Below are positions 10,501 to 63,281 of a stretch of 64,000 nucleotides of DNA, piece after piece. The notes below the pieces were generated by a model. The model had not been told where the DNA came from and did no database searches. It was given only the letters and a program-made list of their open reading frames with translations. Location of the stretch: positions 124,001 through 188,000 of the forward strand of contig VCMS01000144.1 in NCBI GenBank assembly GCA_022539475.1, read 5' to 3'. The position numbers and the translations under genes were made by a program. Position 1 is the stretch's first letter; each line of letters opens with the position of its first letter. Source of the DNA: Gracilaria domingensis. Its lineage: Eukaryota; Rhodophyta; Florideophyceae; Gracilariales; Gracilariaceae.

Positions 10501-10504
10501 GGTA

Positions 10505-12287: not shown

Positions 12288-12288
12288 N
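12288..12288. other. Ambiguous base N: probable assembly joint
   Basis: The only N in the window. Left of it the sequence matches 46268-46490 with many added bases; right of it the match to 46750-46895 is nearly exact. About 260 bases present in copy 2 (46490-46750) are missing across it. Confidence 0.85.
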
Positions 12289-12290
12289 CC

Positions 12291-12445: not shown

Positions 12446-12458
12446 CGTTCCCCGCGCT

Positions 12459-12842
12459 ATGCCGGTAGGTCATCCAGTTGGGTTTGTGTTCTCTGAGGAC
12501 TATGCCGTGCCCTCGGATGTCCCTGATCCAATGGTGGATAATGATGAGATCGCCGTCGTTGCCGGAACAGGCCAACTCACTGGCATTCCGAATACGGACC
12601 CGAACGCAACTGCGGTCCCGACGGAGGGCGCTCCTGCCCCTGAGGGATGGTCCTTGATAGCTCCCACCGCACAACCGGCAAATTGGGCCGGAAGCGTGGC
12701 TTCCCTTCGGGCCGATCTCCAGGCTCATGGCGTGCCAATCCCTCCGGGCGTGAACACCATCGCAGGGCTAGCTGCCCTCGCGAGCGAGTACTTCTCACAG
12801 AATCCCAACGCGGGAAGCGGGGCTCCTCCGACCAGCGGCTAA
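12459..12842 (+). CDS. Antisense reading frame of element I, C-terminal part
   Basis: A plus-strand frame opposed to the element's own genes. It matches the C-terminal parts of the antisense frames of elements III (26569-28534) and A (54687-56501): HPVGFVFSEDYA and DPMVDND here correspond to HPTGFVNSDEYY/DPMVDNE and HPIGFMFSDNYY/DPMVDDT. The tail is rich in Ala, Pro and Gly and contains a VPIPPG motif shared with A (VPVPPD). The upstream part is lost where the DNA transposon end meets the element. Function unknown. Confidence 0.6.
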   Translation: MPVGHPVGFVFSEDYAVPSDVPDPMVDNDEIAVVAGTGQLTGIPNTDPNATAVPTEGAPAPEGWSLIAPTAQPANWAGSVASLRADLQAHGVPIPPGVNTIAGLAALASEYFSQNPNAGSGAPPTSG

Positions 12843-13276: not shown

Positions 13277-13478
13277 CTACCCCACCATCGCATTGTCCAA
13301 CGTTGGAGGCAATGGTGTCCGAGATCGGCGATGATACGACAACACCTTGGACCTAGGGAGGTGTTCAATTGGCTCCCAAGTGTCCTCCTCTGGGGAATAG
13401 CCGTACCAACGGACTCTATACAGTAGCTTCCCTTCGGGGCTTTTCTCTTGTTCCACGATACGATCTACCACGAATTCC
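13277..13478 (-). other. Chromodomain of element I
   Basis: The C-terminal 66 residues of the pol product form a chromodomain: EFVVDRIV, RVRWYGYSPEEDTWEP, IEHLPRSKV, ending LDNAMVG. Chromodomains on integrase direct chromoviruses to marked chromatin. The same 66-residue block without length change closes elements III, A and IV. Confidence 0.9.
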
Positions 13479-14229
13479 TGTGGGTATACGCCATCCTTGG
13501 CATCTCCTGGTGCTTCTCCCGACATTGGGCAGTGATGTCCAGTGGTACCCACGCGGGTTAGTGGTCCTTGGAGGCGTTGAACCGATCTTCGGGGCGGTGG
13601 ACAGGTGGACTTCGGTCTTCTCAAGCCGTCCTGACGGAGTGCGCTAACTCCCGACACGGGCGTCCAATTGCCTCACAAGTGAGTTCAACCGAAAACTCTC
13701 GATCTCCGGAGTCCGGCGAGCTCCTTTCTTTCCCAAACGGGCGGCCAACCGACGAACGGTAGCGTCCGTTTTGCGGAACCACTTTCACTTTGGTCGCAGA
13801 AGAGCCGTTGCGACGGAGAAGTAGCCTACAGCACTCCCTGCGCAGGGCGGCGGAACGCTGGGCCACGGCGCATATCCGGCCGTGCACTCCATTTTCATTG
13901 GATGGTGGCGCGCGCGTGTGTGCCACACATCCCGTGAACGGTATCTACAGTGTCAGTTTCCGACAAGCGGTCGCTAAGCGGCGGGAACCACTCTCCAGCA
14001 ATGGCATGGGATTACAGTATTCAATCTCGAATCTCCCGCCATAGGGCTGCGCATGCGCACTGCGCGCGGTGCCATTTACCGTAATTCCGGGTCCGACGCA
14101 CTATAGCGTTCCGTCTGCTAAGCAGCGCCCTTCATGGGACTTCTCCACTTCCCGACCAAGGCTTTCCAGCACAATCCACAAGGATTCTTTTCTTCTTAAC
14201 TCTCCCACTGCGGGCCATTCCCAGGTGGG

Positions 14230-26525: not shown

Positions 26526-26540
26526 TCTTCCCCTCCTTAG
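26526..26540 (-). promoter_or_regulatory. 3' polypurine tract of element III
   Basis: CTAAGGAGGGGAAGA on the minus strand, touching the LTR. It would prime plus-strand DNA synthesis. The CTAAGGAGGG core recurs inside this element at 33264-33281 and 30044-30061. Confidence 0.8.
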
Positions 26541-26568: not shown

Positions 26569-28534
26569 ATGGCGTCGAGCGAAAACGATATAAGTGCGGT
26601 GCTCCCCGGTCATGCGGTATGTTGTTCTAATTCTCCCGTCAAAGACGTGCTCCCTGCACCTGCAGTAGCCGCACCTCCTCAGAGTACCGAACGCTCTCTC
26701 GCTCCTGCGGTCAACCTTCCTCCGACACCGGAACTAGACCTTACTATGAGGGGCGTCCCACCGAACCAGCCTCCGAACCAACCGCCATTCCCCCAAGGGG
26801 GTTTCACCGGATTCCGATGCGTTCCACTCCTTCAAAAGGGCTCCAACACGTCCGCGGGGCAACAGAACAACGCCGCTGGGTTCTCTGCGCAACATGCCGC
26901 TCTCGCTGGGCCCGTCGTAGGCTTCCACCGGGGCGTGGTCTGGCCATCTTTCAACTCCCTTGTAGGGCTCAACCCGGCAAACCGGCGACATGCGAGGCAT
27001 TTCCGGCCTGAGCCGTGGGTCCACCCGACTGCGGTGTTCAACGAAAGCCTCATTACTGAGTATGCCGATGGGCGCAGCACCCTTCTGGGGGACCGCCCGG
27101 CAATGGTGACCACTTCGTGACATAGGCGAAGGCGAATCGCGATCCGTGTTCATTAGGTTACACGAGAGAACCGGCAATCCCGCGAACAGGCTCACGCAAA
27201 GTTCGTGTCGTTGGCCTACAAACGGCAAGGCCGGGCGCCCTTCGAGTCCCCAATCCCACCGGGGATGGACTTTGACGTGGCCTATTACCGCACCCAGGGT
27301 GAAATTAGTTACTGCGACCGCTTAGCGAAATTGGAAACCTTCGCCTGGCGAGGTATGCCCGTTGCACGGCAGCAAGCCATGTGCTGGACACGACCGATTT
27401 TTCGGGCTGAGTTTCGCTATCTTCCGCACCATCGCTGTCTAACTTCCTTCAGAACGTCATCCCCCATGAGAGGCGGTCTCGATCCCAACTTGGGTATTTC
27501 GCTCTGTATCAGAACGTTGAAATCCGCCACATCCCGGCGGCGCCCCTCAAGGTCGGTATGTTCCTCTACCAGAGTGGTGGAGCTACCTAGAGGCGTCCCG
27601 GGGGTGCTAAATCGAGTTGCCCCCTGTCTTCACCTATCTAGGGTCTTATCTGCTCACAGATCTCCGTACCGGGCTGTGGTCCGTCGTCGTCACCCAGTGC
27701 GCGCTCCGCACGGAGGCGTTCATCCTCGTCGAAGCATATGACCAGTATCGAGTGTGGTTCGTTCCCCCCTGCGTGCGTGCAGCCATTCGAAGTTTGCACT
27801 TGGAAGTCCCCCTCGGGGGTCGCGCCAACAACCAAGAGATGCTAAGCCTTCTCGATTACATCGATAGTGTCGACTGGACTCAGGTGCTTCTGTCTCAGAG
27901 TGATCGTGGTGATTCCCCGAACTCGGGTATTTACGGCTCAGGTTTGGAAAGAAATACCGCTCTCGCGGGCGATTTCGTCTTCCTCGACCCGTGGGATTAT
28001 CGGGAGGTCTCCGCAAACGAGGCCGGTGAGCTCCGTTCTGCTCCCCGGCGCGTGCCGGCCGATCACCCGACCGGGTTCGTGAACTCTGACGAGTACTACC
28101 GAGAGTACCTCGGGAATGACCCAATGGTGGATAATGAACCCGAGGAAACGGGAGACCATGACATCGAGATTATCGAAGAGATCGACGCGACCCCTGTGGG
28201 GGAGAGCGCCGGCTCTGCTCCGGTTTTCGGTTCCGCCTCTGCGGCTGACTTCATCGCTCCCGCTCCTGCGGTTCTTCCAGTACCCATCTCAGCTCCTATT
28301 CCGACTCAGCCGGCTCCTGCGGCTCATCCCCCGCCTGCGCGTGTCAACAAAGGTGCGATTATCGCTCGTTTCCTCCGCGGCACGGGCTCAGGCGCAAATG
28401 CAGCCTCTGGCGACGTCACTGCTATGGCGGACGCCTTAGCTCAACGCCTCGGCGGTATGCCTCCTTCGAATGAGAGCGATGGTGCCGGCGAGTCAAGCTC
28501 TTCCCATTCGTGGGTAATTACCTGTTCACAGTAG
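26569..28534 (+). CDS. Antisense reading frame of element III
   Basis: A roughly 650-codon region opposed to the element's genes, starting 44 bases from the LTR and converging on the chromodomain. Shared with element A are HPTAV, RPIFRAEFRYL (A: RPILRAEFRYL), EAYDQYRVW (A: EAYDQNRVW), GDFVFLDPW (A: GDFVYYDPW), DHPTGF (A: DHPIGF) and DPMVDN. The N-terminus is Pro/Ser-rich and the C-terminus is an Ala/Pro-rich tail. No membrane segment or known domain is visible. A few breaks are present. It is not an accidental mirror of pol, because it lies outside the pol coding region. Confidence 0.7.
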
Positions 28535-28870: not shown

Positions 28871-29071
28871 TTATCCCACTTGAGCGTTGTCCAGTGTCGC
28901 TGGTGTGGCCGTTCCCGCGTTGCTGTGGTACTCTACGACCTTCGAGCGCGGTAGGTGCTCGATGGGTTCGTCGGTATCCCACGATGGGCCATAGCCGTAC
29001 CAACGGACGTGGTATCGTAAAATGCCATCCTGGTCCCAGGCGTGCCCGATAATTCGGTCGACGATGTACTC
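28871..29071 (-). other. Chromodomain of element III
   Basis: 66 residues: EYIVDRII, YHVRWYGYGPSWDTDEP, IEHLPRSKV, ending LDNAQVG. It is preceded by a long Ser/Thr/Pro/Arg-rich linker to integrase. Confidence 0.85.
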
Positions 29072-30154
29072 TTGAACGTACACCTGCGGGCCTTGCCGTA
29101 TTATGGTTACTTCATCGGTCGACAAACCTTGCGGGGGAACTGTTCCCGTGACGGAGGTAACAGCACGCGCCTGGCTTTGTGTCGCCAGTTCCCTCCGAGG
29201 AAGAGCGTTCCGAAAGGCGCTGCGTACCGCCAGTTGGTGTGGGTCCTTCCGCTTCGGCGGTGTTGGCGGAGCTGCATGCTCACCGTTTGCGGCGGAAGGT
29301 TCCATCTCAGGTGGCTTTACAACCGTGCATGCACGTGATTGTAGCGACGGTTGGCTGTCAAGCTCCCTCGGGAGAACCGCCTCCCTGTTACAGGTGTCCT
29401 CCAACGGCTGCGCCGTTGGCCCTTGAGCTTCCTTGCTCGAATTTCGTTTCTGAACGGTTACTTCCGGGGTTATCTGCACCACAGGCGGCTTCCGATCTCG
29501 CGATCTCGGCGTGCTACACTTGCGCCGATATTTTCTTTCCAGTATGTGGTGCTGTACCGTCCATGACGTGAACGCTTCCCGGAATTTCTGGCATTCCCAC
29601 GTCTGTTCTGCCGGTTTCCACCGAGTCGCTCGGGACTTCTCTTCACTCATCTCGTGCCTGCTCCGCAGGATTTCACAGGCTTCCTGGCTGTTCCGCGTCG
29701 CGTTGCACCGTGGATCGCGATGTCGCTGGGCTTTCTCTAGTGGGGCTTCGTTCCGACGACATCGGGTTGGTGCCGGCGACATCCTTCGACTTCGCTTCGC
29801 CGAGCGCGGCTGGTAGGCCACGAGGTTCTGTTGACTTGACCGAATCCGCTTCTGCGTGAGTGCTCTTACCATGCGACGGTGTGGAATTCCGGGCAACGGG
29901 GCTGTGTGTGCGGCGAGCGAGTGCGCGTTGCGGACGCGATGCCCGCTGGCGTACCGGAGCATCTGGAGAGCTCCGTACGGTCCGTGCTGCTCGGTTGTCC
30001 TCACGTCGCGACGTCGGCAAAGAACTCTCAGCAGGGCTGATAACCTCCTCCCCCTCCTTAGATGGAGCAGCGTGAGGAGTACTTGAATGTCCCGCATCGC
30101 GGGTAGGTGAACCCAGCGATGGGACAGAAATCGGGGTGCCATGTTGCTGATCTT

Positions 30155-37395: not shown

Positions 37396-37763
37396 CCACC
37401 TCGCCTCGACCGGCGATATTTTTCTCTTCCACCATAACCTCACTCGATGGTTATAGCAAAACAGGAAGATATTGCCAGTGGAGGCAAGCTAGGGACTAGT
37501 GATTGTACTTAGAGTTGCTCACCCTCTGTCTCGACCGGGGGCATGTTCTTCTTCCGTCACATCCTTTGTGGGTTGTGACAAAAATCGAATATGTCACCAC
37601 TCGACACCGGATGGGTAACTATGATAGCACGTAGAGTAGTTCATCCTCCCTCTCAGCGTCCACTGGGGATATATTGATGTTCTCTCACATCCTTTCCCGG
37701 TTGTGCCACTAGAAAAAAACATCTCCAATAGAGACGGTGAATAGAGTCGTGATAACACGTAAA
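37396..37763. repeat. Three diverged tandem repeats, period 122-123
   Basis: Units start near 37396, 37519 and 37641. They share CTCGACCGG-like starts, TTCTTCC(G/A)(T/C)CACATCC in the middle and GATAGCACGTA-like ends. Similarity is perhaps 60-70 percent by eye. No gene is seen in them. Confidence 0.55.
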
Positions 37764-37802
37764 GGTAACAATGTAATAAACAATAAATTTATGCTACTAT
37801 CT

Positions 37803-38124
37803 CTAACCAACCTTTCGAAAACCAGCTATGACATGAGCTGGGTTACTCGAGCCAAAGATGGCAGATCCTGCAACTAAAATGTTTGCACCGGCCTTCACTA
37901 CTCCTTTCACAGTACTCAGTCCAATACCCCCATCCACCTGTATCCCTATTCTTGGGTACAACTCCCTTGCATGTCGCACCTTGTCAAGAACACCCTCCAT
38001 AAACGCCTGTCCTCCAAACCCTGGCTCCACCGTCATCAACAATAACATGTCTACAACTCCTTCGTTCATAAGTGCTTCTACGACCTTTATAGACGTATTC
38101 GGGCGCAATCCAACTCCATCCTTT
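37803..38124 (-). pseudogene. RPE: Ribulose-phosphate 3-epimerase, C-terminal fragment
   Basis: The minus strand codes the C-terminal half of the Calvin/pentose-phosphate enzyme that interconverts ribulose-5-P and xylulose-5-P. GVGLRPNTS, DMLLLMTVEPGFGGQAFM (the catalytic/metal-site loop), IGIQVDGGIG with the conserved Asp, and GANILVAGSAIFG are all diagnostic, and the natural C-terminus follows. There is no ATG: an in-frame TAA lies just upstream of KDGVGL and the N-terminal (beta/alpha)8 half is missing. This is a truncated gene piece of about 105 residues, probably carried here by duplication or capture, since it sits beside other fragments inside an insertion. An unseen upstream exon is possible but no matching text was found. 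Confidence 0.8.
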
Positions 38125-40984: not shown

Positions 40985-41760
40985 TGTTTTGGGAGGTCCC
41001 GGGAAGGCGCCGAAATGTGGCCAAAACGTGCCCGCGAGCGGGGAGGGGTCGGTCGTGTTAGGGTACCTACCCTAACACGACCGGACCCCCCCCACCCCCG
41101 GGCATAAAATCGCACATTTTTCAAAAAATCGTCCAAAACGTGCCCGCGGGCGGGGGGGTCCGGTCGTGTTAGGGTAGCTACCCTAACACGACCGAACCCC
41201 CGCGCCCGCGGGCATAAAATCGCATATTTTTCAAAAAATCGTCCAAAACGTGCCCGCGGGCATAAAATCGCACATTTTTCAAAAAATCGTCCAAAACGTG
41301 CCCGCGGGCGGAGGGGTCCGGTCGTGTTAGGGTAGCTACCCTAACACGACCGACCCCCCGCGCCCGCGGGCAAAAAATCGCACATTTTTCAAAAAATCGT
41401 CCAAAACGTGCCAGCGGGCGGGGGGGTCCGGTCGTGTTAGGGTAGCTACCCTAACACGACCGACCCCCCCCGCCCGCGGGCATAAAATCGCATATTTTTC
41501 AAAAAATCGTCCAAAAGGTGCCCGCGGGCGGGGGGGGGTCCGGTCGTGTTAGGGTAGCTACCCTAACACGACCGACCCCCCTCCGCCCGCGGGCATAATA
41601 TCGCACATTTTTCAAAACATCGCCCAAAACGTGCCCGCGGGCGGGGGGGTCCGGTCGTGGTAGGGTAGCTACCCTAACACGACCGACCCCCTCCGCCCGC
41701 GGGCACGTTCTGGCCACATTTCGGCACCCTCCGGAGACCTTCGAAAGCACTCCTCCCGGC
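40985..41760. repeat. Palindrome array B, six units
   Basis: Palindromes of 34 bases with core TTAGGGTAGCTACCCTAA lie at 41050, 41161, 41319, 41429, 41541 and 41652. The spacing is 110-112 bases except one of 158. Those at 41161, 41319, 41429 and 41541 are exact. Between them are GCCCGCGGGC blocks and a TCGCACATTTTTCAAAAAAT stretch. The array is bracketed by an inverted repeat of about 55 bases: TTTTGGGAGGTC...GAAATGTGGCC near 40988 and GGCCACATTTC... near 41712. Confidence 0.9.
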
Positions 41761-44700: not shown

Positions 44701-44783
44701 GGAAGAAGAAATGAACGAGAAACGACGACAAAGACTGCAAGGGAAGGGCGTCCGAAGGGAGAAGGAGGTCGAGCGACAGTCAA
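41771..44783 (-). pseudogene. Plavaka/CACTA-like transposase, copy 2
   Basis: A transposase read on the minus strand. The N-terminus (44783) has a Cys/His cluster (YYCTHKKRGCPF...HVNHC) typical of a DNA-binding finger. A disordered Ser/Pro stretch follows, then the core: YPLHLIFLNFSDELRRK, SPCHRCKAPR, PLHNLHLGISKLIK, and in the C-terminal part KFHLLDHLVDDIRRLG and YEHAHLLFKRHYKKTSRR. These match in order the Plavaka branch of CACTA transposases (Tnp2-like DDE enzymes), which cut and paste DNA by their terminal repeats. Length is about 1000 codons. Two breaks are visible: an in-frame TGA at 44378-44376 and one frame change near 42910. The last codons run into palindrome array B, whose TTAG supplies a stop at 41674. 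It is the better-preserved copy. Confidence 0.7.
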
Positions 44784-46322
44784 TATCGACGTGTTGCTCA
44801 GAATGGAGAATATATTTTGAGTTTAAATCACGTGCTTTCGTTCAAAAAGGAACGTAGGTACACGTCGACCTCAACACAAGGGTGTACTTCTCGTATTATC
44901 TACCACTGGTTATAAACCTCTGGTTTCCCAACGTTGTACGCTGTACACTTGTCCAATCTCGCACAGAAAAATAAATCTCTTCCCTCCGCCGCCGCCCCCG
45001 CCCGTCCGACGTCCGATCTTTTGTTACCGTCGTGATCCGTGCCATCCTCGCGTTCTACTCCGCTCCGTCGTACGTTTTTCCGCCCTCGCACTCGCTACGA
45101 AGTGCGAGGGCGGAAAAAAGTACGACGGATTACGAAGTAGCGTGCTGAGAATTGATTCCATTAAGCGGACATGAAGCGTACCTTATTCTCTTTCTCCGCC
45201 CTCGTCGGACGCCTCCATAAAGCGGACAGCATCCGTATCTCACGGATGTATTCCGTGCAGTCTTTCCGTGCAGTCTTTTCGTACGTGCTTCCATTTCCTT
45301 CTACGTATCTTTGTTCTAAACTAACCAATCCTCACCACGTCTCTTCGCGCCCTGCGACATGTAAACGGCAGGAAAAAGGCTTTGGGTTACTTTTGCGAGT
45401 TACTAGGTCCCTCGACTTTTCTAGCGCAACGTTTCTGTTTTGCTCTTATCAATGGTACGTTCTATCGCATTTCAACTGTATCCAACGGAGCATTGACTAA
45501 CTTATGGATACTTTCCGCTTGCGTATACAGGAAAACGACCAATTTCATTTCGTCTCTCAAGATCGATCTCTGGCTGTTCGGGATAGGCGATTCTGGTACT
45601 TGGTTGGGACATAGGCTGCTCTCTCGTTTATCGCATCTTGAGGTATGTTTGCTGCATGGCCATTCTTGGTGTCCTTGGTTGTGAGTTCTCGCTTCGACAC
45701 CTTTTCGCGCTTTACGATGATGGTGGGCTGGTAATCTAACCGATCCCTTTCCTGCTTCTTCTTCCGTTTGCGAGTTACTAGGTCCCTCGACTTTTCTAGT
45801 GCAACGTTTCTGTTTTGCTTTATCAATGGTACGTTCCATCGCATTTCAACTGTACCCAACGGAGCATTGACTAACTTATGGATACTTTCCGCTTGCGTAT
45901 ACAGGAAAACGACCAATTTCATTTCGTCTCTCAAGATCGATCTCTGGCTGTTCGGGATAGGCGATTCTGGTACTTGGTTGGGACATAGGCTGCTCTCTCG
46001 TTTATCGCATCTTGAGGTATGTTTGCTGCATGGCCATTCTTGGTGTCCTTGGTTGTGAGTTCTCGCTTCGACACCTTTCGCGCTTTACGATGATGGTGGG
46101 CTGGTAATCTAACCGATCCCTTTCCTTCTTCTTTTTCATTTTGCGAGTTACTAGGTCCCTCGACTTTTCTAGCGCAACGTTTCTGTTTTGCTTTATCAAT
46201 GGTACGTTCCATCGCATTTCAAATGTATCCAACGGATCATTGACTAACTTATGGATACTTTCCGCTTGCGTATACAGGTAAATGACTTTTGATGCGTACG
46301 TAGCTCACGAGTTGCAGGTGCA
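44784..46322. repeat. Upstream region of transposase copy 2 with 375-base tandem repeats
   Basis: GCGAGTTACTAGGTCCCTCG begins units at 45395, 45770 and 46143 (two full units of 375 and 373 bases and a partial third), over 95 percent alike. They lie 5' of the transposase, where CACTA elements carry subterminal binding sites. No gene is present; all open frames here are repeats of one another. Confidence 0.8.
45065..45128. repeat. Inverted repeat, 28-base arms
   Basis: Arms 45065-45092 and 45101-45128 (CCGTCGTAC...CCGCCCTCGCACT) pair with one mismatch around an 8-base loop. The corresponding place in copy 1 (about 10777-10820) has only one arm, so the second arm is a fold-back duplication unique to copy 2 or lost in copy 1. 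Confidence 0.85.
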
Positions 46323-46476
46323 GGTTCCTCAAGTGGGGAACCATGCATCTGGGCATGGTTCCCTACATGACGAACGGAGAGGATGAGGCGCTTCGCGCCT
46401 CATCCTCTCGGAGTGCGTATGTGTTCTACCGTTACCGCAATTTGGTGCAGGTGCCCTCTGCGGCATCTGCCGCAGA
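46323..46476. repeat. Cluster of three hairpins near the transposon right end
   Basis: GGGAACCATGC/GCATGGTTCCC at 46336-46363 (6-base loop), a 15-base perfect stem at 46377-46391/46395-46409 with loop TTC, and TCTGCGGCA/TGCCGCAGA at 46457-46476. Degraded versions occur at 12128-12275. Confidence 0.85.
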
Positions 46477-46747
46477 TTGTGCCTACACCCGATCCATCAT
46501 GGGGAAATGGTACATGTAATATAGCGAAGTAGTGGTTAGCAAAAGCGGTCGATAGAAGAATAGATACGAATAAAACGGTATGATTTCATAATGGGCATCA
46601 TCTGTACTAGCACTAGTATTCCATGCGTTGCAGGGTATCATTCCGCAGAAGGTATCATGTAATGTGCACCTTAATGGAAACTGAACCTAGACTTCGCGAA
46701 ATACAGTTCAGGTAGCCCTCGACTAAAGAACTAGCACGAGTTGAAAA
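46477..46747. other. Stretch found only in transposon copy 2
   Basis: No gene is seen. In copy 1 the flanking sequences meet at the N at 12288, so this part is either missing there or hidden in an assembly gap. Confidence 0.6.
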
Positions 46748-46895
46748 CCCACCAGTATTTACTGCACAGCGATTCTGGACGACCCAAGCAATTATCTGCA
46801 GATTTTGAAATAATTGATCTCGATATTTTTTCAAAAAATTTACTGGACGACCCTTGCCAATTTCTGGACGACCCTCGCCAAAAACTAGCATCTGC
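46748..46895. repeat. Right end of transposon copy 2: TGGACGACCC repeats
   Basis: Three TGGACGACCC repeats and the end CTAGCATCTGCAAGA, nearly identical to 12291-12445. Gag of element A resumes directly after. Confidence 0.65.
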
Positions 46896-46899
46896 AAGA

Positions 46900-48801
46900 G
46901 ACAGACGTCCGGCCACGGAGAGACCAGACGATGTGGTTGAAACCTCTGGATACTCGTACCTCGAGGCTCAACTGCGTGTCAGTCAGCTCGCCTAAAACTC
47001 GTTGTTCGAGGATCTGCAGTATCTCAGACGGAAGCTTGACCAAGCTGAAATCGGAGATCCGACCAATGACATTCGTGTCTTACGTCAAGATTTGAATTCC
47101 ATTTTGGAAAGTCTGGGTGCACCAGCCGCTTTTGTTCAAGCTTACCATTCCTCTATTCAGGAGCATCGAACTGAAATCGATCGCCTAACCACTCGGTTGT
47201 CTAATCTCGAAGAGATCATCCGGATGGCTAACGCATCTGATGCGAAGAATGCTAAGGAAGAAGCCTCCAAGCGCTTGGCACGCCAACCTCCGTATCATGG
47301 AAATCGACGATCCAAAAAGGAACTCCGTTACGACTCGGATTCGTCTAGTTCCAATTCTAGTGTTCGCTCTGCGAAGTCATCGTCTGATTTGTCTGACAGT
47401 GATGAGGACCGACATCGGTATAGCAGTCGCTCCCACGGAACGAATTCGAAGGCGACGTTTACCTCTCAAGGTGCTATTCGCTCACGCGAAAAGGGTAGAC
47501 GACACCTTGGTCTGAAAGAGCTGAAACCAACGAATCTCCTCTACAGGAAGCTGTTGTCGTATCGTTATTTTCGATTGGACGATTCATCGTCAAGTCGCAC
47601 CTCGCTAAGCACCGGTAAGGTGAAGGACCACATCAGAAGACTGAATATCGTCTTTATGAGGAAATTCGATGGCGAAGATTCCATTATGGTTCTAGATTTC
47701 CTGGCCCGCTTTGTGCAGGATGCCGATATTCTCGGTATGAACGAGGCTCAGGCGTTTCTCGCTTTACCCTATTTCTTGTCAGGGATGGCTGAAGATCAGT
47801 TCAATTCCGTTCGCGGATCATCCCGTGCGTCTGAGGAAGGTGTTACTTGTTGGCCGGAAGCGGTCCAGTACCTCTTGAGGTTGTATACGACAGGAAACGC
47901 GATTCACAACGCGACGCTCGCTCTGCGAGATACGAAGCAGAAGCCGGATGAAACCGAAACGGCATACTCAACTAGGTTGAACAAAGCGTTTCATCGCTGT
48001 GGTAACTTTTATTCCGCCGACGAAAGATGCACGATGTTCGTGGATGGATTGATCCCCACAATCAGGGTTTTAGTCGCGCGTGTTCGCGAAGACAAACGTA
48101 GAATTACGTATCTGGAACTGGTCCAGTTTGCCCAAGCGGAGGGCGAAGTCTTGCGTGCTCGCAACCCTAAGAAGTCCCACCGTTCGAGGGCTCTTCTCGT
48201 ACACGAGTCATCTCCATCTTCTTCACTGGAACGTGGGAATTCCATCAATCCGGATTTGGATAATGTGCATTTCATTGCAGGTCATCCCGATTCGTACGGG
48301 TCTTCTGAGATTCCGTCGTCGACAGCTCCGACTTCGGAAAGTGACCCAGCTCTTTATATGGGAGGACAACGGGTACCGGCCGCCCCACTCGCTTATGCGA
48401 ATAACGGAAGCCGTTTCTCACGCCCAGGATGGATTAATGCGCAACCGCAGCGTCGGATGGATGGTAATCGATCTTTCGATAAGCCGGTAACGGCTATCTG
48501 TCACATTTGTTACCGACACGGTCATATTGCACCTGTGCGCATGTTGCCCGCTCGGGAGTTACCGAAAATTATCGGGTGGTATGAATCTCTGTCATCAGCT
48601 GACAAGGCTCGTGTACCGAGTAAGAATTATGAAGCGCAGAAAGCCATGTTTGGCAACCCTGGTACAGGACAGAACGTTCGTGTAGACGAAACTCGGAATG
48701 CGACCGAACAGATGACTGCGACTCACCCCGATACCGGGAATTCAGTTCCTAACCCTGGCCAGGGAATGCCTTCACCGGCGGAACCAGCCCAGAAAAACTA
48801 G
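46900..48801 (+). other. gag of element A, main part
   Basis: Coiled-coil-like stretch (LFEDLQYLRRKLDQAEI, IRVLRQDLNSILESLG), a Ser/Asp-rich stretch, capsid-like core (LDFLARFVQDADILGM, ALPYFLSGMAEDQFNSV) and a knuckle region (CHICYRHGH). It ends QKN-stop at GAAAAACTAGAC; pol starts in the -1 frame, so a -1 ribosomal frameshift as used in the family is likely. Confidence 0.85.
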
Positions 48802-48803
48802 AC

Positions 48804-51800
48804 TTGGGAGTTTCCCCTATGGGAGGGGCGTCTCCTGAGCCGAAGTTGGAGACGCCCGAGGCGCCGCCGCTTCGCTCTCCGGCCGATTTCCTGAAGAGGA
48901 TTGTCCTGACAAGGAAAATGGCTCAGTCAGACGTTGACTCAGGACCGCTTGCGGTTTTACGTCGTCCATGGGTGCGTGTACGCAATCTCCGTGCCCCGGA
49001 TCGAGTCCTTGTGATGGCCGAGAGGAATTATAAGCTTTTTGCCGACCTCGGCGTTTCACATCAGTTTATGGTTCGACAACTGTCTGTTTTAGACACTGGC
49101 GCGGAGCCGAATCTGATTCACTCAGCTTTGCTGCCACCCGAACTTCGGGAGTGTGTTCGTTATGGTCCAGGGTCGGATATCGCCGACGCGAACAATAACC
49201 CCTTGAAGACGGCTGGGTACATATCTCTGAATGTCAGATTAGGCACCTATCTGGTGAAGCTGGATTTTGTCGTTTGCGACTCTCTCGCAGCACCGGTAAT
49301 TATCGGTTGTGACTTTTGCGACCGCTTTGTTGAAGCGATACGCCCGAGGGCGAAATCCGTGGAAATGGAAAACGGAACTACTATTCCGATCGTTCGGAAG
49401 CCGCTACGGAGGGCTATCCGGAAGCGTGTCCCGTTACCTGTGGCACAGGAAGTTCCGAACATGGATCCGAAGTCTACGAAGCTTCGCCTCGCGAAATCCA
49501 TTTCAATCCCGCTGGAATCCCAGATATGGGTGCAGTGTATCTCCAAGCAGCATGGAATTAGGTTAGTGCAACCGTCATCGTCGTTATACGACCAATGCCA
49601 ATTGGCCGTGGTAACGGTGTGGTTTACATCGAACCCGGTGAACCTTTTAAGGTACTTATCGCCAACTTTGGCAAAAGCACGAAGTGGTTGGTTAAACACC
49701 AAGTACTGGGTTCAATTCTCCCGCATCCGCAGGCTATCGTGAAGACGAAGATACCCGCTTCCGAGGTTCTCGGTATTCCTGACACTAAGAAAGGGGAGGA
49801 GCGTCCGGTTTCTTCCGGTTCTTCCACGAATGGAAACGATGTGAACTCCGCTGTTTCGGATGACGTCGCACTTGACGAAGTGGCTTTGGTGAATTCGTGT
49901 CACGAACAACCGGTCACCTCGGTAATTAGGGCCTTGCCGCCAGGCACCGACCAGACAGATCCTGTCGAGGAGTTAGAGAAGTTAAATCTGGAACATGTTC
50001 CTGAATCCCACCGTGGGAAGTTGAAGGACATGCTCCGTGGCTTTACTCCCATGTGGGATGGTTCACTTGGAACAATTGGAATTACGGAACACCGTATTGA
50101 TCTGCTACCAGAAACCCGACCTATTGCGCAACACCCGTACCGGGCTGGCCCGAAAGCGCGGGAAGAAGAGAAGTCTCAAGTCGAGAAGATGTTACGCGCT
50201 GGCGTAATTGAGCCCGCTCAATCTTCCGGAGCATCTCCAGTCGTGCTAGTTCCGAAATCGGATGGATCGTGGCGATTCTGTATCGACTACAGGCGTCTGA
50301 ACGCCGCGACCGTCAAAGACGTGTATCCGATTCCACGGATGGATGAGCACATTGACTCTCTTGGCAGCGCCAAAGTCTTTACAACCCTCGATGCCAATTG
50401 GGGTTACTGGCAGGTTCCAATAAGGAAGGAAAACCGCGACAAGACCGCGTTTGTATGCCATCAAGGCTTGTTCCGTTTTCGACGGATGCCCTTCGGTTTG
50501 ACGAATGCTCCCGCTACGTTTCAGCGAGCTATCGACATTCTGTTGGCCAGATTCAAGTGGAGGACTTGCTTGGTGTATCTCGACGACATTGTCGTATTCT
50601 CCGACAATCTGGATGATCACATCTCCCATGTGAGGGAAGTTATGCAGTTGCTGCAAGACGCAGGTGTTACCTTGAAGCTCAAGAAATGCGAATTCTTTAC
50701 CGATTCGGTGAAATACCTGGGCCACATTATCCGCCCAGGGAAACTCTCGGTCGACGAGGTAAGGGTGAAGTCGCTGAAGGAAGCGAAACATCCGACAACT
50801 CAAACGGAACTCCGATCATTTCTCGGTTTGTGTAATGTCTATCGTCGGTTCGTCCCGAATTTCGCTGATACTGCAGCTTCTTTCAATTCTCTCCTCAGGA
50901 AAGGACAGCCAGTTAAACTGGAACCATTGGGCGATGCGGACGCATCCGCCTTTTCGGCGCTTGTCGCCGCCGTAACGTCTCCGCCAGTCTTGGAATTACC
51001 GACTCCTGGGCTTCCTTATGAAGTGGATACTGATGCAAGTCAATACCAAGTTGGTTGTGCGCTTTTCCAGGTTTCGGAAGATGGCGTACGACGCCCAGTG
51101 GGATACTGGTCCCGTTCGCTGAATGTGCATGAGCGCAACTACTCGGTTTCCCAGAAAGAATGTCTTGCCGTTGTATGAGCACTCTCAACTCTGAGACCGT
51201 ACCTCATGGGAACCCATTTTCAGGTGCATACCGATCATTCGGCACTCCGTTGGCTTATGGAGATATCTGAGCCATCAGGTCGCCTTATGAGATGGCGTCT
51301 CCGCTTGTCCGAATTTGATTTCGAAGTCCGTTACAAACGGGGAACCCTGAACTTGCAGGCAGATGCGCTCTCCCGCTTGGGAACTTCTGGTGAAGCAGAA
51401 CCTGCCGATGACGACGACATCGCCTGCTTTTTGGCTGAAGAATTCGAGGAAGAACCAGACTTTCTGGACGACGTCTGCGACGACATACTCGCCACCGGAG
51501 CGGTTACAGCGTTACCCGGTTCATTTGAGACCATTACGGCTGAAGAGTTGATACGTGAACAACACTCGGACAAGTTCTGTACACAGATAAGGGCCCGTCT
51601 TAACGGGGGGATGAACTTACCCTTCGTGACAAACGATCAGGGATTCCTGGTAAGGATTGTCGAATCTCGACCACAGATTGTGGTACCGCACTCCTTACAA
51701 TGGAGGATTCTCCATATGTCACATCACGTAAAGATTGGAGCCCACCCTGTTGGCAGGAAGTTATACCGCAGAGACTTTTATTGGCCAGCCATGGCATTCG

Positions 51801-52756
51801 ACTGCTATGCAGTGCGCCGTTCCTGTACGGAATGCGCTAAGAACAGCGTCAAGTTGAGGCGTCACTCAAAGAAACTATCGCTGTTTCCAGCTCGCTCCCC
51901 GTTGGAGTTCGTCGCCATCGACATTCTTGGTGAATTGATCAAAACCGCCCGCGGTCACCGTTACCTTTTGGTTATCACGGACAGGTTTTCGAAGCTCGTG
52001 CGAACTGTTCTGCTTAAACGGATAACCGCCAGTATTGTGGCACAAGCGTTCGTGACGCATTGGGTTTTCGTTTACGGACCACCCGTTCATCTGTTATCAG
52101 ATAATGGCTCGCAGTTCACATCGAGATTCTTTCAGGACGTTTGTCGTATCTTGGATATCAAGAATTTGTTTACAACAACATACCATCCCCAGTGCAATGA
52201 GCAGGTAGAACGGTTTAACCGTACGATGCTAAACGCATTGAGATCCTACGTTGCGGATCACCCAAAGGATTGGGACCTGTACACTGATGCGATAACTTAC
52301 GCATATAACACCCAGGTACATCGGTTTACGTCGCTGTCGCCTTTTGAATTGGTCCTCTCAAGGATTCCGCCACCTGTGGCAATTGAATCTCAAGCGACGC
52401 TATCGTCTTTACCGTCGACGGGTTTGTACAGGGACACCTGGAAAAATTGGTTGAAGAAGATGGTACCGGTAGCCCGGAAGGCCATGGAGAAGGCTCAACT
52501 CGCGTACAAGCGAAATTTCGACAGCCGGTTACGCGGCAAACCATCAATGGTGAAAGCTAATGACTACGTCTTCCTATGAAAGGAGTATTATAATCCTGAG
52601 AAGGTACGACGACATAAGCTGTCTCCGATCGCCGACGGACCGTATCACGTTATTTCTGTTACTCCAGATACCGTCGTGATCGACATTGATGAGCAACACG
52701 AGCGTGTATCGCGTGATCGCGTCGTACTGGCACCTCCTTCGCCTTCCGGATAATCT
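48804..52756 (+). other. pol of element A: PR-RT-RH-INT
   Basis: Protease with LDTGAEPNLI near 49092; reverse transcriptase with YPIPRMDEHIDSLGSAK, MPFGLTNAPATFQ and YLDDIVVFS near 50577; RNase H (VDTDASQYQVGCALFQ) near 51020; integrase zinc finger near 51725-51860 and core with AIDILGE, LLSDNGSQFTS and TTYHPQ near 51915-52220; GPY-like end (LSPIADGPYHV) near 52625. Element I has the same organisation. Confidence 0.9.
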
Positions 52757-54097
52757 ACAACCAATACCCAATCAGGGGATCCTCAACAGGAGGCAAAACC
52801 GTCAACGGCCGCTACACTACCGTCGCGCCGGGCGATTCTCCCGCACCCGGATCGAGGATTAAGAGATCTACCTACAGTAGTTACTTCTGCCCACAGAATT
52901 GAACTCCCTGCTACTTGGACGAATTCCAACGACTCTGCACGAGTATTTACAAGAGTCACCCCCCCACCCCATCTCCTGATGGAGCCCGTGGCGCCACCTA
53001 AGGAGGGAGAGGATACCGCAGCTGCTGCGAATGGCACTGACGCTCCGGTGTCGTCCGGTTCTCTAACCACGGGAAATGTGATCCACACTGACAACCCAGT
53101 CGCTCCCGTGGGAGAATCTAGTGGCACAGTTGCCTTGTCGCACCCCAACCGTGAGGACTCCGCCGCATCGGTCTCCGTTACCACGGAACGTGCCTGTGAG
53201 AGGCGAAACGTCGCCGCAGAAGCAGTTACCCATCATGGGATTGTTAACCGCTTGAAGTCGCGTAACCGCGTCGAGGATGACAGTCGAACTGTGAAGACAG
53301 TTTCCGCTGATCCGGACCAGCCGTCATACGTGGAATAATAGCGCTGCAACACTGAAAAGGGAAGCCTCGTAAGCGAGTTGTGTCAAATGTGACCACTCAT
53401 TGTGAATTCCCTTGTGGGATTTTGAACGCTTTCTTGGAAACCGACACTCCACAGTGTGCACCACTTTGTGTGTCGTATGGAGCCGTGGCGCTCAGCCACC
53501 TCTGCACGCGTGCAATCTCCGTGACACGGGGCCTGACAGAACCAGGGGCGTGCCACGCGGTGGCACTTTACAACGTGGAAAGCCCTAATGAGCTGTCGGC
53601 GACCTTTCGCGAACGGATGGCCGAGCACGGCACGCGCACGGTTGTCGTGGTGGCCAATCTGTGGCGCGGAGCCAATTAGAGCTCATGGCACATGCCCCGT
53701 GGACCGGGTGAACCGCCGCCCAGCCCAGATAGTGTTGTACATACCTCCGTCACCGAAACGGTTATCCCCGTGAAGGCCGGGAAGTCAGTCAATCGGAAGT
53801 ACTACCGTTTGTCGGTCTTTCGACTATCGTCGACGAACGTTGAACCGTTGAACTCGTCAGTTCGAGAGCTTTCAGAACATCCCTCTAGCTGGAGGACAGG
53901 ACGCGTAGGACGCGAGTTACAGTACGGCCGCCGCAGCGGGATCTGGCGAGGAACGCGGAAGTAAGCACGTCTCCAACACTTGGAAAGCCTCACCTGAGGG
54001 ACGCGAGCGCATTTGCACAACCTCCCTAGGTGATACTGCGTCAGCAGGAGTGGCCCATACGCCATGGAGGCCCGCGAACGGGAAGTGTTCCCACTGG

Positions 54098-54297
54098 AAT
54101 TCGTTATCGAACGCATCGTGAGTCACGTCGTGAACCCCGATGGGAAGACTGAATACCAAGTCCGTTGGTACAGATACTCCCCTGAGGAGGATACTTTCGA
54201 GCCGATCGAACATCTACCTCGATCGAAGGTTCTCGCCTACTACCGGCGTAAGCGGCTAGCGCTGCCTCCAGATTTGGATAAGGCCCAAGTAGGGTGA
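54098..54297 (+). other. Chromodomain of element A
   Basis: 66 residues: EFVIERIV, YQVRWYRYSPEEDTFEP, IEHLPRSKV, ending LDKAQVG. A linker of about 1.3 kb, rich in Ser/Thr/Pro, separates it from integrase. Confidence 0.9.
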
Positions 54298-54686: not shown

Positions 54687-56501
54687 TCACTGCCATCCTG
54701 TCGAAGTACCGGCACCTCCAGGGTTGGACGGCCCCGCTTGGAGAGGCTGACTCGCGAAAGCCTGCGCGCCCAATGCCAACAGCTGGCCGAGATCGTACAT
54801 ATCCGGTGGAACCGGCACCCCAAGTCCGAGGAGTTGGTTGCGCATCGCTACCACGCGAGGGTCAATACTCCCCTGCGAAGGGCCCACGCCCCAACCGAAA
54901 GGAGCAACTGGCGCAGCCGCCCCTCCGACAACCGGAACTCCTGCGGAGGCCGTCGACGAGCCTCCCGTTGCCAGGTCTCCCACAGTGTCATCCACCATTG
55001 GATCGTCCTCCTCTGCTACGGAGTAATAGTTGTCGGAAAACATGAACCCAATAGGGTGATCGCTCGGAACCACTCGAGGAAGTCCGCGTAGGACGAGAGC
55101 CCGCTCCTTCGGGACGGTAACTCCCTCCCAGGGATCGTAATACACGAAGTCACCGGCACCCGGATGTCTTCGCCCTGGGGAACGGTCGTAGTGCGAACGA
55201 GTGCCCCTGGGGACTTTCTCCGCCGGAACGGTACTCCAATCAATGGAATCGATGAGATCGATAATGCTGATGGCCTCGCTGACGTTGTTGTCCGAACCGA
55301 GCGCGGTGTATAAGTCCAGTGATCTAATCACATTCCGTAACCTCGGAGGCAAATACCAAACGCGGTTCTGGTCGTATGCTTCCCACAGCATAAACGCGGC
55401 AACGCGAGCGGCTCATTCGGCGATGAAGAGCATCCAATACTCCGAGTGCGGATTCGCAATCATGCGTGACCCCACATAGGAGATGCACGGAGGCAATTCC
55501 GGGAAATACCCCCGTGGTACCTCATAGTGAGCCCACCACGATGGGAAGGGAGCAATTCGACCCGCTAGTGCGTCCGAACGCAAACGTTCAACCTCCATGT
55601 TCTGGTGTGGAATCAGGTACCCGAACCGAGATCGCCACTTGCGTTCGTTTCGCAATCGGTCGAAGAACCTTCTCTCTCCCGAAGGGCGATGTAGATATCG
55701 GAACTCCGCTCGCAAGATAGGCCTGTTGAACAGGAGAATGTCCGCCGGCATCGACTCCGGGAAGTTTTCCGCCGCTTGGAAGTCCGCGAGGTTCGCGCCA
55801 TACTTGATCTCTCCGTAAGTTCGGAACCGGGAAAGGTCGAACCCGTATGACTCAGGGATCCTCTCGGAGAACGAGGCTCGGTCCTTCCGAAAGTATGCCA
55901 AACGCGCCATAGCCGCACGCGCTTCATCTAGCGTTTCGTATCCACGGCCGCGCCGTTCCCGTGCCAACACGTGGGGTGCAATCGCCACGCGGTGTCTCCA
56001 ATCCCAGGAATCCACCATATCTCGGTGCAGGCCGCCAGGCAGCATACCGTTCTCGGTGTATGAATCCATCAACGCACTGTTGCGAACCGCTGTCGGGTGA
56101 AACCAGGGCGCTCTGGAATAGGCCCAGCTTCTTCCGGTAGTCGGATCTTGAACAAGGAGCGATTCACGCGCTATCCAGCCAGCTGGAGTCGCCAGTAAGG
56201 GCACCGCCTGAGCGGAATTCCACGCCGCGACGTCGACCGGATTCGGTGTAGAGGTGTGATGTTAACTCTGAGGCAGAGGAGCGGAGGCGAAACCGCCGAG
56301 ATACCCTGTCGCAGGAGTTGCCGGACCCGAAACGTTTGGAACCCCGGTTTGAGAAGGCTGCTCGTCGCCCTGGTGAGGGTTCATCGAATCTTCGATCGCA
56401 GAAGAAACTTCAAGTACTGAATCGTCTGAATGCAGAGAAGTTGAGTGCGCTTGCGCGTGTGTCTCGTTGTGACGAGGAACCGGAATCTCGGATATGTCCA
56501 T
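54687..56501 (-). CDS. Antisense reading frame of element A
   Basis: A region of about 605 codons on the strand opposite to gag-pol. It starts 80 bases from the 3' LTR and ends about 390 bases before the chromodomain. The N-terminus is acidic and Ser-rich (MDISEIPVPRHNETHAQ). The middle has HPTAVRNSALMDSY, FRTYGEIKYGANLADF and RPILRAEFRYL; then EAYDQNRVWYLPPRLRNVI, IDLIDSIDW, GDFVYYDPW, DHPIGFMFSDNYY and DPMVDD; the tail is Ala/Gly/Pro-rich. The order and spacing agree with the frame of element III. It has very few breaks. The family is unknown. Expression would need an antisense promoter in or near the 3' LTR, as for HBZ of HTLV-1, to which no sequence similarity is claimed. Confidence 0.7.
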
Positions 56502-56567
56502 GGTGGACCGTGCTTATATACTCCCTCGCTAATGAGTCTCCGCTTGCAAACCGGATGTTTCCTGCGC

Positions 56568-56581
56568 TAAGGAGGGGGATA
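56568..56581 (+). promoter_or_regulatory. 3' polypurine tract of element A
   Basis: TAAGGAGGGGGATA directly against the 3' LTR. Related tracts occur inside the element at 49785-49800 and 52998-53012. Confidence 0.85.
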
Positions 56582-57562
56582 TGTAGAGCAAAACGTGCTC
56601 GCCCGATACACGGGGATTGTTTTCATAAACCCCTGGTAAGGATGATTCCGGGTACTCGGAAGGTATGAGTATTGGCCCACGGATGGGATACGTTTTTGCA
56701 GTATTGAGGTATGGCACCCTGAGGGGTCGGCCATGACGTGGGGCGGATGAGTATTGGTCGCGTGTACGCGTGTGTAGGAATGGGTGTGTTCACACATGTC
56801 TTCTTATGATTGTCGGATATTTTACTGGCCGCTGCCGCGGGTTGCACACCTTCCACGTGTATGGACCTGCACAAGCGTGCACTTTATTTATTTAATTTGG
56901 TTTAACTAAGTAATCGGTTACGATATAAGAAGCTGACCTCGCGGCCACCTCCGCCCCTCAGTAAAAGGTAACCGAGTTCGGCTCTGAACTAGTTCGCCAT
57001 CGCGAAGTGTACAACTCCTTCCGGAGCGTCACCGCGTACGGTACGAGTTAGCTTCATCCCTCGGGACCACTCAGGCAATACTGACCATTGTGGCCTTGCC
57101 TTCGGGCTGATTTATTCCGTGTCTTCGGACTGTTCTTTTTTCTTATTTGTGCAGTTGTACTGCTTTCACCACAATTGGTAGCGTTTCGGTCTCTGTATAG
57201 ATTTGTGCCGCGTGGGCTTAATACACATCGTCGTCTCCCGGCGCCGGGTCTGTTGCCGCTTTCCGCACGTCCCGCCGCGGGATTCCTCTCTTTTCCTCCT
57301 CTATTTTCCTTCTTTCTCCCCTTTTGCCTAGGGCTTACACCGCTCTACGGTACCTCCCTCCTCAACCATTCCGTCGCTTTTCGCCGGATTCCTGGATCAG
57401 GCCCGTTCGCCCATCAACCTCCGTAGGTATATCCCGCACCACGGGCGGTCTTACACCCGCACTATCCGTGTTCGGAGGGCTCACCACTGAGTTCACCTCG
57501 TCTAGGGGGCAAGGACTCGAACGCCTTGAGAGACGATCCCATCGCTGAGGTTTTGCTCTACA
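56582..57562 (+). repeat. 3' LTR of element A
   Basis: 981 bases with tips TGTAGAGCAAAAC and GTTTTGCTCTACA, followed by the target duplication TCCAT (57563-57567). Confidence 0.9.
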
Positions 57563-60960: not shown

Positions 60961-61130
60961 GAGTTCGTGTCTGGATTTTGACACGGACTTTTGCCGAGTG
61001 GAGTCGAGCTTGTGTCTGAAGTTTGGCACGAGCTCTAGCCTTTTGGTTTTGAGTCTGTGTCTGGAGTTTGACACAGATTTTAGCCGAATTATTTCACGTC
61101 CTCGTCTGGAGTTGGCGTGGGCCCTAGCCG
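60961..61130 (+). repeat. Four tandem hairpin units in the element IV leader
   Basis: Units begin at 60961, 61005, 61051 and 61096 (period 44-46). Each has a GTGTCTGGAGTTTGACAC-like hairpin. The stems change together: TCGTGTC/GACACGG, CTTGTGTC/GGCACGAG and CTGTGTC/GACACAG. Confidence 0.6.
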
Positions 61131-61245
61131 TTTTCTTATTTGTTGCTTATTTTATTGTGCACATCTGCATATTGCCATTAATTTGGCTGGTACCCCCTGG
61201 CACTTCCGTTGGGTTTGTCATCACCGGCGTCATTCTGTTACAAAA

Positions 61246-63281
61246 ATGACGTCCACATGGTACCCCCAGCAAGGCCTCGTACCGCGTGAAGCTATTATGT
61301 CATTCAACGGGTCTTCCACAGATATCAGGAAGTTCCGCTTCTATTTTGCGAATGTTGCTACTCCTGGCATGGATGACGCTGACAGAGCTCTGAAGCTTCT
61401 TGGTTATTTGGAGGGAGAAGGTTTCCACTTTTGTTACGACACCTATGCCCCCGAATGGGTCTCTGACGAGCGAGCTTATGATTACGAGGGAGTGAAGCAA
61501 GCCCTCATTGACCGCTTTATGGCTGCAGTAGAACCGGAGGAGCAGATCCGTCGTGCCGTCGCTGCTCGTATAGACTACGAGGACCTTTTGGGGTCTCTAA
61601 AGAAGATGGACGCCTGCTTTGAGTTAGCAGGGTTCAATGAGAAAGCACATTTTGGCCTTCTCCGTAATGGTGCTATGGAGTATGCGGATCTGGCCCAGTT
61701 TCTGATCTTTCGCGGGTCTGACAATTATGAAGCCTTCAAGCGTCTCGTCAAATCCTTCGTTGCTGGAACGAAAGCCCTGGGTTCCTATGGAGCATTGAGT
61801 GCGCTTCCGCCGCCCAAGCAACTACTGCAGAGGCCGTGGAAGTCGAAGACCGCACGCCCGAGTGCAGCGCCACTAGAAGACAAAGTTGAGCGACTGGCTG
61901 AGCAGATGGCGGAGCTTCACCTCCTTGTGAAGAAGAACCAGAGTGGTGGACCTCGGCAAGAAATGGATCAGACGTGTTCTTACTGTCAGCAAATGGGTCA
62001 CTTTTCCAATCTTTGTGAGTTGAACCCACACCGCAGCACCCGTTGCGGTCGTTGTGGGAGACTGAGACATTCCGCCGTGACTTTTTGATCTTAGCCTAAG
62101 GACGACGCAGAACGCATATATCACTTGAAGGGGCGAGGCCGGAGTCAGCCGCCGAGAGGCCCTTGAAGGAGAGAAATGCCCTCAGTAAGGTTGAGGAGAA
62201 CCACGTTTCAGTTGTGGTTAATGACTTCGATGATGAGGAAGTTGTTACTGCAACGAAGAGAGATGCGGATGGTGCTCCTCTACCGAAGCAGCCGCGTATG
62301 GATGCGCTACCTGGTACCTCACCAGCGATGTTCCCACAGAACCAAGGCAATGGACCGGTCCCTAAACCTCCAGTCGGAAGCTCAAAGAACAAGTCAAAGC
62401 GCCGTAACACGTCGCGCTCGAAATCAAAGACCAAGCCTACAAATATCAAGATCCAGGAGCACATCGGCAAGTACAACGTCTACAAGGAACTTGCCAAAGC
62501 CCCGTCGGGTATTACATTCGGCCAGTTGGACCGTGATGATGCTGACGAAGCGAAGAAGGATCTTCAAGTGTCGAGCTTCGTGGGAGATCCGCTTCCAACG
62601 GAGCATTACCGTGCGCAAGCCGGACACGTGCCAGCCACAGACCTGGTGCCGCGAAAAAACAAAAATTCCGAATTTGAATCGGCACGCGCCCGCCATGAGG
62701 CGGTGCATAGCTCTGCTACCGTAACGCGCTGCGAACCGCCGCCACGGCACATGCCAGAAAACCACTAGTTGGCACGCCGCACAGCGAACCGTTCACAGTT
62801 ACTACGGGAGATTGCGCCGGAACGCCGGAAACTCGCCGTTCGAGAAGACCGAAGTTCGGTTACAGCCCCGCAACTTGGGAGCGAGAACCAGGAGCCTGGA
62901 AGCATGAGTGTCAGGAGAACACCATGGTCAAAATGGCCCTCGCCTGGCGTACAGGATGCATTGCCGTCAGGACGGAGGCCGCAAGCAACTGGTGAAGCCT
63001 ACGACGGGGGAAGCAACAATGACGCCTCGGGAGAGGATACATCGACAAAGCCGCATCCTGATCGGAAGTTCCTCGATGAGGAGTATGTCATCGACCGTCT
63101 GGTAAGTCACGGCTACGCCCCTGACAGGGAACTACTGTATCGAGTCTGTTTGTACGGCTACGCCTCTTCAGAGGATACGAACGAGCCCATTGAGCATCTG
63201 CCTCGCACCAAGGTCTTGCAGTTCCACCGTCGCACATGGACACCGATACTGGCTACGCTGGATAAATCACAAGTGGGTTGA
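61246..63281 (+). mobile_element. Element IV: gag plus chromodomain, no RT or integrase
   Basis: Gag from ATG 61246 to about 62090 has a capsid-like core (FNGSSTDIRKFRFYFANV, LKLLGYLEGEGFHFCYD) and zinc knuckles (CSYCQQMGHFSNLC and a second Cys/His cluster). It is unlike gag of I and A. The region 62163-62768 has the pre-protease linker pattern YNVYKELAKAPSGITFGQLD found upstream of retropepsin. A chromodomain (63081-63281; EYVIDRLV, IEHLPRTKV, LDKSQVG) follows with no polymerase or integrase between. It is a large internal deletion derivative or a parasite of a related chromovirus. Few breaks lie in the parts kept. Confidence 0.75.

What the first reader, a model, noticed from the sequence alone, without database searches (positions are those of the whole stretch)
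54687..56501. A conserved antisense gene in three chromoviruses
Seen: elements I, III and A all carry, between chromodomain and 3' LTR, a frame on the opposite strand coding related proteins (12459-12842, 26569-28534, 54687-56501). Shared blocks in the same order include HPTAV, RPI(F/L)RAEFRYL, EAYDQ-RVW, GDFV-DPW, DHP(T/I/V)GF and DPMVD. In A and III the frame starts 44-80 bases from the LTR and converges on pol. Known: antisense genes from a 3' LTR exist (HBZ of HTLV-1), and extra antisense frames are reported in a few plant LTR elements. Inference: protein-level conservation between clearly diverged elements suggests selection and an unknown accessory function.
Basis: partly seen in the sequence, partly recalled or inferred. 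Interest (0 to 1): 0.88.

Follow-up and report, generated by a model that had tools for sequence, protein, structure and literature searches.

The report
Antisense gene in algal retrotransposons
Jumping genes that look like those of a red alga carry a real extra protein gene written backwards at their far end; natural selection has kept the protein, yet it resembles nothing we could match and some recently spread sister elements lack it.

Summary
Frame A (54687-56501, minus) starts 80 bases from a 3' LTR (56582-57562), antisense to and converging on a pol with chromodomain. The window copy has two in-frame stops, III is frameshifted, I keeps only its last 131 codons; other natural copies are open (604 codons in 5 of 40 A copies; sister families 681 and 685 from the first ATG). 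It is a gene: dN/dS is 0.16-0.19 against three copies of the nearest sister group; changes private to one copy look neutral (omega 1.03), those shared by five or more copies do not (21 N, 35 S, 0 stops). aORF and pol trees of four families agree. Database searches gave 17 relatives (one named: Gracilariopsis chorda), no Pfam match above cut-off and no fold match in PDB. A TATA-like box precedes the first ATG in 5 of 8 families, outside the LTR. Of 113 pol ends, 78 have the aORF on the opposite strand, 0 on the same strand, 28 carry a 2.3-kb non-coding module instead, 7 neither. So the gene is dispensable in cis. Best reading: a trans-acting accessory gene, placed like plant aORF-3R genes (Grande gene23), from a new protein family; its function is inferred.

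The parts
54687..56501 (-). antisense frame (aORF) of element A, 604 codons plus stop; this copy has two in-frame stops
55413..55415 (-). premature TGA, codon 363 (window copy)
56262..56264 (-). premature TAA, codon 80 (window copy)
56513..56521 (-). TATA-like box (GTATATAAG on the minus strand) just upstream of the first ATG
   Evidence: TATA-like box in 5 of 8 families
56567..56581 (+). polypurine tract next to the 3' LTR
   Evidence: LTR/PPT motif in 38 of 40 A copies
56582..57562 (+). 3' LTR of element A (TGTAG...CTACA)
54061..54294 (+). chromodomain at the 3' end of element A pol, convergent with the aORF
   Evidence: match to L041 pol, whose Chromo domain is shown
49601..53053 (+). element A pol (match to L041 pol residues 269-1413), broken into several frames in this copy
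46996..48801 (+). element A gag-like frame (601 aa, stop to stop; no Pfam scan of it was made)
   Evidence: compared with that of I
26569..28534 (+). aORF of element III, damaged by frameshifts and stops; the last 307 codons are open (27611-28534)
26527..26540 (-). PPT of element III (complement seen on the + strand)
28874..29266 (-). chromodomain end of element III pol, convergent with its aORF
12447..12839 (+). last 131 codons of the aORF of element I; the rest is cut off by a repeat
13280..13492 (-). chromodomain end of element I pol, convergent with its aORF

Best explanation
The frame is a true accessory gene of a clade of Ty3/gypsy-type elements with chromodomain. SHOWN: it is protein-coding, under purifying selection, in the same antisense place in at least four diverged element families, and its tree agrees with that of pol. 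SHOWN: it is not needed in cis, because sister elements with the same pol end and most of the same LTR amplified recently without it. INFERRED: it is transcribed from its own TATA promoter between PPT and ORF, towards pol, giving an mRNA of about 2 kb. INFERRED: the protein (disordered N-terminus, a conserved globular core of about 380 residues, disordered linker, short helix-loop-helix tail) acts in trans, probably on transcription or nuclear steps of its own element family, as plant gene23-type proteins are thought to do.
For: dN/dS between families; private changes neutral but widely shared changes constrained among 40 copies; open frames of 604 codons and, from first ATG, 681 and 685 codons in sister families; 22 of 134 rows have a 721-codon stop-to-stop frame; of 113 pol ends 78 have the aORF on the opposite strand and 0 on the same; quartets of aORF and pol agree, 100 of 100 bootstraps each; relatives in other sources; confident core model (mean of the 10-residue blocks about 88 pLDDT for residues 81-460 of P0003); TATA-like box in 5 of 8 families against a background of 152 of 11768 40-base strand windows; aORF-less sisters; no transmembrane-like stretch (highest 19-residue hydropathy 1.54 among 7 proteins).
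Against: No transcript, localisation or binding data. The TATA-like box starts only 7-19 bases before the first ATG, so a start site 25-30 bases downstream would fall inside the frame and translation would have to begin at the second Met; three of eight families lack the box, the strict TATAWA form is in two of eight, the pattern was chosen after seeing the sequences and the families are not independent. No nuclear or DNA-binding domain was found; weak hits of the tail to unrelated small families are below cut-off. Elements without the gene are also young (22 of 41 module rows at 99-100% identity), so its benefit may be small. Most A copies are broken (34 of 40).
Confidence: 0.6

Rival explanations
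1. Structural or assembly protein: the aORF makes a particle or nucleoprotein component rather than a regulator.
For: Its rate of amino-acid change (pN 0.378, A versus I) is nearer to gag (0.295) than to RT (0.111); it is long, with a folded core.
Against: Structural genes are normally made from the sense RNA in large amounts (general knowledge); gag is present separately; aORF-less sisters exist; no fold match to capsids or other viral models.
Confidence: 0.18
2. The antisense RNA matters (dsRNA, interference with sense transcription) and the protein is secondary.
For: Convergent geometry; PMC7264820 raises this for plant aORFs.
Against: Selection acts on amino acids: omega 0.16-0.19 and phase-specific change; frames stay open for 604-685 codons.
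Confidence: 0.06
3. Env-like protein for cell-to-cell transfer, in reverse orientation.
For: It lies between pol and 3' LTR, where env-like genes lie (PMC7264820).
Against: No hydrophobic segment in 7 proteins, antisense, no viral fold match.
Confidence: 0.03
4. Chance open frame kept by composition, or a nested unrelated element.
For: Moderately GC-rich DNA can give long frames; 34 of 40 A copies lack an open frame of 600 codons.
Against: dN/dS, other frames closed, relatives elsewhere, same strand relation at 78 of 113 pol ends, tree agreement.
Confidence: 0.02
5. Captured host gene whose role is host-derived, for example suppressing silencing.
For: Faster change than pol would fit a host interface; aORF-less sisters could rely on it in trans.
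Against: No relative with a known function or a known non-element setting was returned; context of the relatives is unknown.
Confidence: 0.11

Closest known systems
Plant antisense aORF-3R genes: Grande gene23, RIRE2, Retand ORF4 (PMC7264820 parts 1-2 of 3 read; PMC11963269 passages)
   Same: Between pol and 3' LTR, antisense, in several element families, presumed accessory; for gene23 a promoter upstream of the gene and a nuclear protein are reported there.
   Different: The Retand lineage is described as non-chromovirus and 97% of its clusters carry Transposase_28 (PF04195); here pol ends in a chromodomain, the host is probably a red alga, and the protein matches no Pfam model above cut-off.
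Plant eORFs in the Neumann survey (PMC6317226, passages)
   Same: Extra frames in either orientation near the 3' end.
   Different: There the eORF proteins of Ty3/gypsy elements fall into 314 groups with little in common and their function is questioned; here one family spans at least four element families and other sources, with measured selection.
brtn of Boty elements in Botrytis (named in PMC8365987 passages and PMC7264820; the original paper not seen)
   Same: Antisense gene in an LTR element.
   Different: Sequence not compared here; fungal.
HBZ of HTLV-1 (PMC11963269 passage; start in the 3' LTR is recalled)
   Same: Antisense accessory gene of an LTR element.
   Different: HBZ is a nuclear regulator of a retrovirus; no direct sequence comparison was made, and the Pfam scans of our protein gave no match above cut-off.

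Membership tests
antisense aORF-3R of LTR retrotransposons | lies between pol and 3' LTR | tested here: met
antisense aORF-3R of LTR retrotransposons | opposite strand to gag-pol | tested here: met
   78 of 113 pol ends opposite, 0 same, 35 without
antisense aORF-3R of LTR retrotransposons | present in most copies of the element | tested here: inconclusive
   78 of 113 pol ends of the L041 type; 28 carry a non-coding module instead and 7 neither; the 40 A copies were collected by the aORF itself
antisense aORF-3R of LTR retrotransposons | transcribed antisense from an own promoter | not testable with these tools
   only a TATA-like box
Retand-type Transposase_28 (PF04195) protein | matches PF04195 | tested here: not met
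   not among matches at E up to 1 or 10; HMMER's filters drop most matches above about 0.1
Ty3/gypsy chromodomain element (chromovirus) | RT, RNase H, integrase, chromodomain in this order | tested here: met
   L041 pol: RVT_1, RT_RNaseH, Integrase_H2C2, rve, Chromo
Ty3/gypsy chromodomain element (chromovirus) | groups with chromoviruses in an RT tree | not tested
   no reference RT set was aligned
env-like gene | transmembrane segment | tested here: not met
   7 proteins, hydropathy only
LEM/SAP-like helix-extension-helix tail | profile match | tested here: inconclusive
   single members only, all below cut-off: Thymopoietin 0.031-0.2, Ish1 0.2, but also HipN 0.099 and Sas-5 0.0096; 4 rough scrambles gave none

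The most novel reading that the evidence does not exclude
A previously undescribed protein family with a fold not matched in the PDB is a trans-acting factor of red-algal chromodomain elements, made from an element-internal antisense promoter. Sister elements have swapped the gene together with the first part of the LTR (U3) for a non-coding module, so gene and U3 form one regulatory cassette and the gene-less elements either escape that control or parasitise it.
Probability: 0.3. Interest if true: 0.8.

Novelty: new variant of a known kind. Interest (0 to 1): 0.66.

Why it matters
The function of antisense genes in LTR elements is unknown and in part doubted (PMC7264820, PMC6317226). Here one homologous protein is followed through four element families with measured selection and a tree that agrees with pol, and natural gene-less sisters in the same genome serve as a control. 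That makes the open question 'what do antisense retrotransposon genes do?' directly testable: compare RNA, small RNA and copy gain of carriers and gene-less sisters.

Full report
WHAT IS THERE. The minus frame 54687-56501 reads 604 codons from MDISEIPVPR to GTSTGWQ, with two stops inside in the window copy. On the plus strand a gag-pol with chromodomain ends before it (54061-54294), and a PPT (56567-56581) and LTR (56582-57562) follow. Elements I and III have the same order on the other strand. The window's assembly is 77.9 Mb in 680 contigs; DNA search with the frame gave 41 rows there (40 of 266 candidates scored), read as 40 loci. Five (L006, L007, L020, L028, L035) have an open 604-codon frame, one (L014) 612, and 34 are shorter. 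Protein searches returned 74 rows with the A query (73 of 1327 candidates scored), 130 with III (129 of 895) and 150 with I (150 of 520), so copy counts are lower bounds.

IT IS A GENE. Among the 40 A copies, changes seen in one copy only are N 580, S 214, stop 27 (omega about 1.03), as expected for dead insertions. Changes shared by two or more copies are N 275, S 172, stop 23 (omega 0.70); those shared by five or more N 21, S 35, stop 0. So mutation after insertion is neutral but the replicating lineage is constrained. Intact A copies compared with each other give omega 0.52-0.80 (4 pairs), diluted by the neutral part. Between A (L006) and the nearest sister group (L043, L044, L045) omega is 0.157, 0.189, 0.178 over 588-600 codons; with remoter loci (L046, L047, L042, L041) 0.245, 0.265, 0.313, 0.254, where dS is high and imprecise. 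The first 40 codons are less constrained (0.36-0.62) than codons 96-480 (0.13-0.21). The aORF changes somewhat faster than gag (pN 0.378 versus 0.295, A versus I) and much faster than RT (0.111).

DESCENT. For A, I, 721 (L041) and III the aORF (530 columns) and pol (886 columns) both give (A,I),(721,III), 100 of 100 bootstraps each. The simplest reading is that the gene predates these families. Homologous proteins: five, six, fourteen, together 17 (P0003-P0019); one is named, Gracilariopsis chorda BWQ96_10156 (P0004). Each search scored only the ~8000 candidates sharing most words, so more may exist. Their DNA context could not be read.

PROTEIN. Alignment A3 shows conserved blocks such as RPILRAEFRY, ERR.RSR.G, EVPRG, ELPP.LTY.G and EW.ARVAA..LWE.YD..R. 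The model of P0003 has pTM 0.67 and block means averaging about 88 pLDDT over residues 81-460, mostly helical, with disordered ends and a small helix-loop-helix tail; the core of P0010 is similar in secondary structure (pTM 0.71). No fold match in the libraries searched, no Pfam match above cut-off, no membrane-like segment.

START AND PROMOTER. From the start of the PPT complement to the first ATG are 39-75 bases in the seven loci where the start is clear (L049-L052 without a gap in the frame, L056-L058, counting L049 39, L056 60, the others 75). A TATA-like box (ATATAAG, TATTTAA, TATAAAT) begins 7-19 bases before the first ATG in five of eight family representatives (A, 721, 703, L043, L046) and not in L049 (III), L056, L057; L047, a relative of L046, has lost it; the strict TATAWA pattern is in two of eight. 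Background for the broad pattern is 152 of 11768 windows; the pattern was chosen after inspection and the families share descent, so the nominal probability (2e-8) is not to be trusted. A second Met (MNPN or similar), at codon 40 in A and further in for other families, recurs across several families and is where P0003 begins; if the box works at the usual distance, translation starts there. The first Met region (IPVPR-like motif) is also shared by several, which speaks for use of the first Met. This is unresolved.

NATURAL CONTROL. Starting from pol rather than the aORF: of 142 rows matching the last 278 residues of L041 pol, 113 reach residue 276 or beyond; 78 have an aORF (134 rows) on the opposite strand within 2.5 kb downstream, none on the same strand, 28 have instead a 2.3-kb module, 7 neither. 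With the stricter end 278 the numbers are 74, 0, 28 and 7 of 109. Four of the gene-less loci were read (L061-L064): pol end 92-94% identical to L041 in DNA, LTR 99% identical from L041 position 8689 on in three and 94% from 8581 on in one, but everything between, including about the first 150-250 bases of the LTR (which by my reading starts at about 8433 in L041), is not alignable; no aORF trace at E 0.01, and the PPT motif AAGGAGG was not found there. The module is 99.4-100% identical among these four and 22 of 41 rows are 99-100% identical, so it spread recently. In diverged copies (L065, L066, L067) 1 of 7, 1 of 14 and 2 of 9 gaps are multiples of three (end gaps counted) and changes show no codon phase, so it looks non-coding. 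Three of the four gene-less loci read (C476, C33, C176) lie in 1851-codon pol frames. The aORF is thus dispensable in cis; whether carriers supply it in trans, or it was given up together with its U3, is open.

WHAT IT WORKS LIKE. Geometry matches plant aORF-3R genes (PMC7264820, parts 1-2 of 3 read; PMC11963269 and PMC6317226, passages). By that review, gene23 of Grande is transcribed antisense from a promoter upstream of the gene and its protein is nuclear; for Retand a regulatory role is proposed. I commit to a trans-acting accessory, probably regulatory or nuclear, protein. The coding claim I hold at about 0.97, own antisense promoter 0.55, regulatory role about 0.4.

LIMITS. No transcripts. 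Host unnamed. Gene-less and carrier elements were compared only in the L041 (721) type clade. Stand-alone gene copies outside elements were not sought as such.

Noticed in passing
L061-L064 (C476, C33, C176, C139): Sister elements with the same pol end and most of the LTR but a 2.3-kb non-coding module and another LTR start in place of the aORF; 22 of 41 module rows are 99-100% identical.
   Followed up: yes
9100-12448 and 43500-46908: Two copies of one repeat: 9100-12284 against 43500-46490 at about 85%, plus an end piece at 98%. One cuts the aORF of element I; the other lies just before the gag frame of A.
   Followed up: partly
12288: Single N at the edge of that repeat, possibly an assembly join.
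   Followed up: no
34401-35383: 96% copy of the 3' LTR of A, near element III; solo LTR or part of another element.
   Followed up: no
61084-63281: Another element-like stretch with a gag-like zinc-finger frame (by eye) and a chromodomain hit at 62979-63278.
   Followed up: no
45392-46286 and 41021-41705: Tandem repeats of about 374 and 110 bases.
   Followed up: no
36001-38000: Strong GC skew (-0.49) over a 2-kb stretch.
   Followed up: no
P0005-P0009, P0011-P0018: 13 of the 16 unnamed relatives lie on contigs of only 1.9-6 kb, some barely longer than the frame; they might be assembled transcripts, which would be evidence of expression.
   Followed up: no
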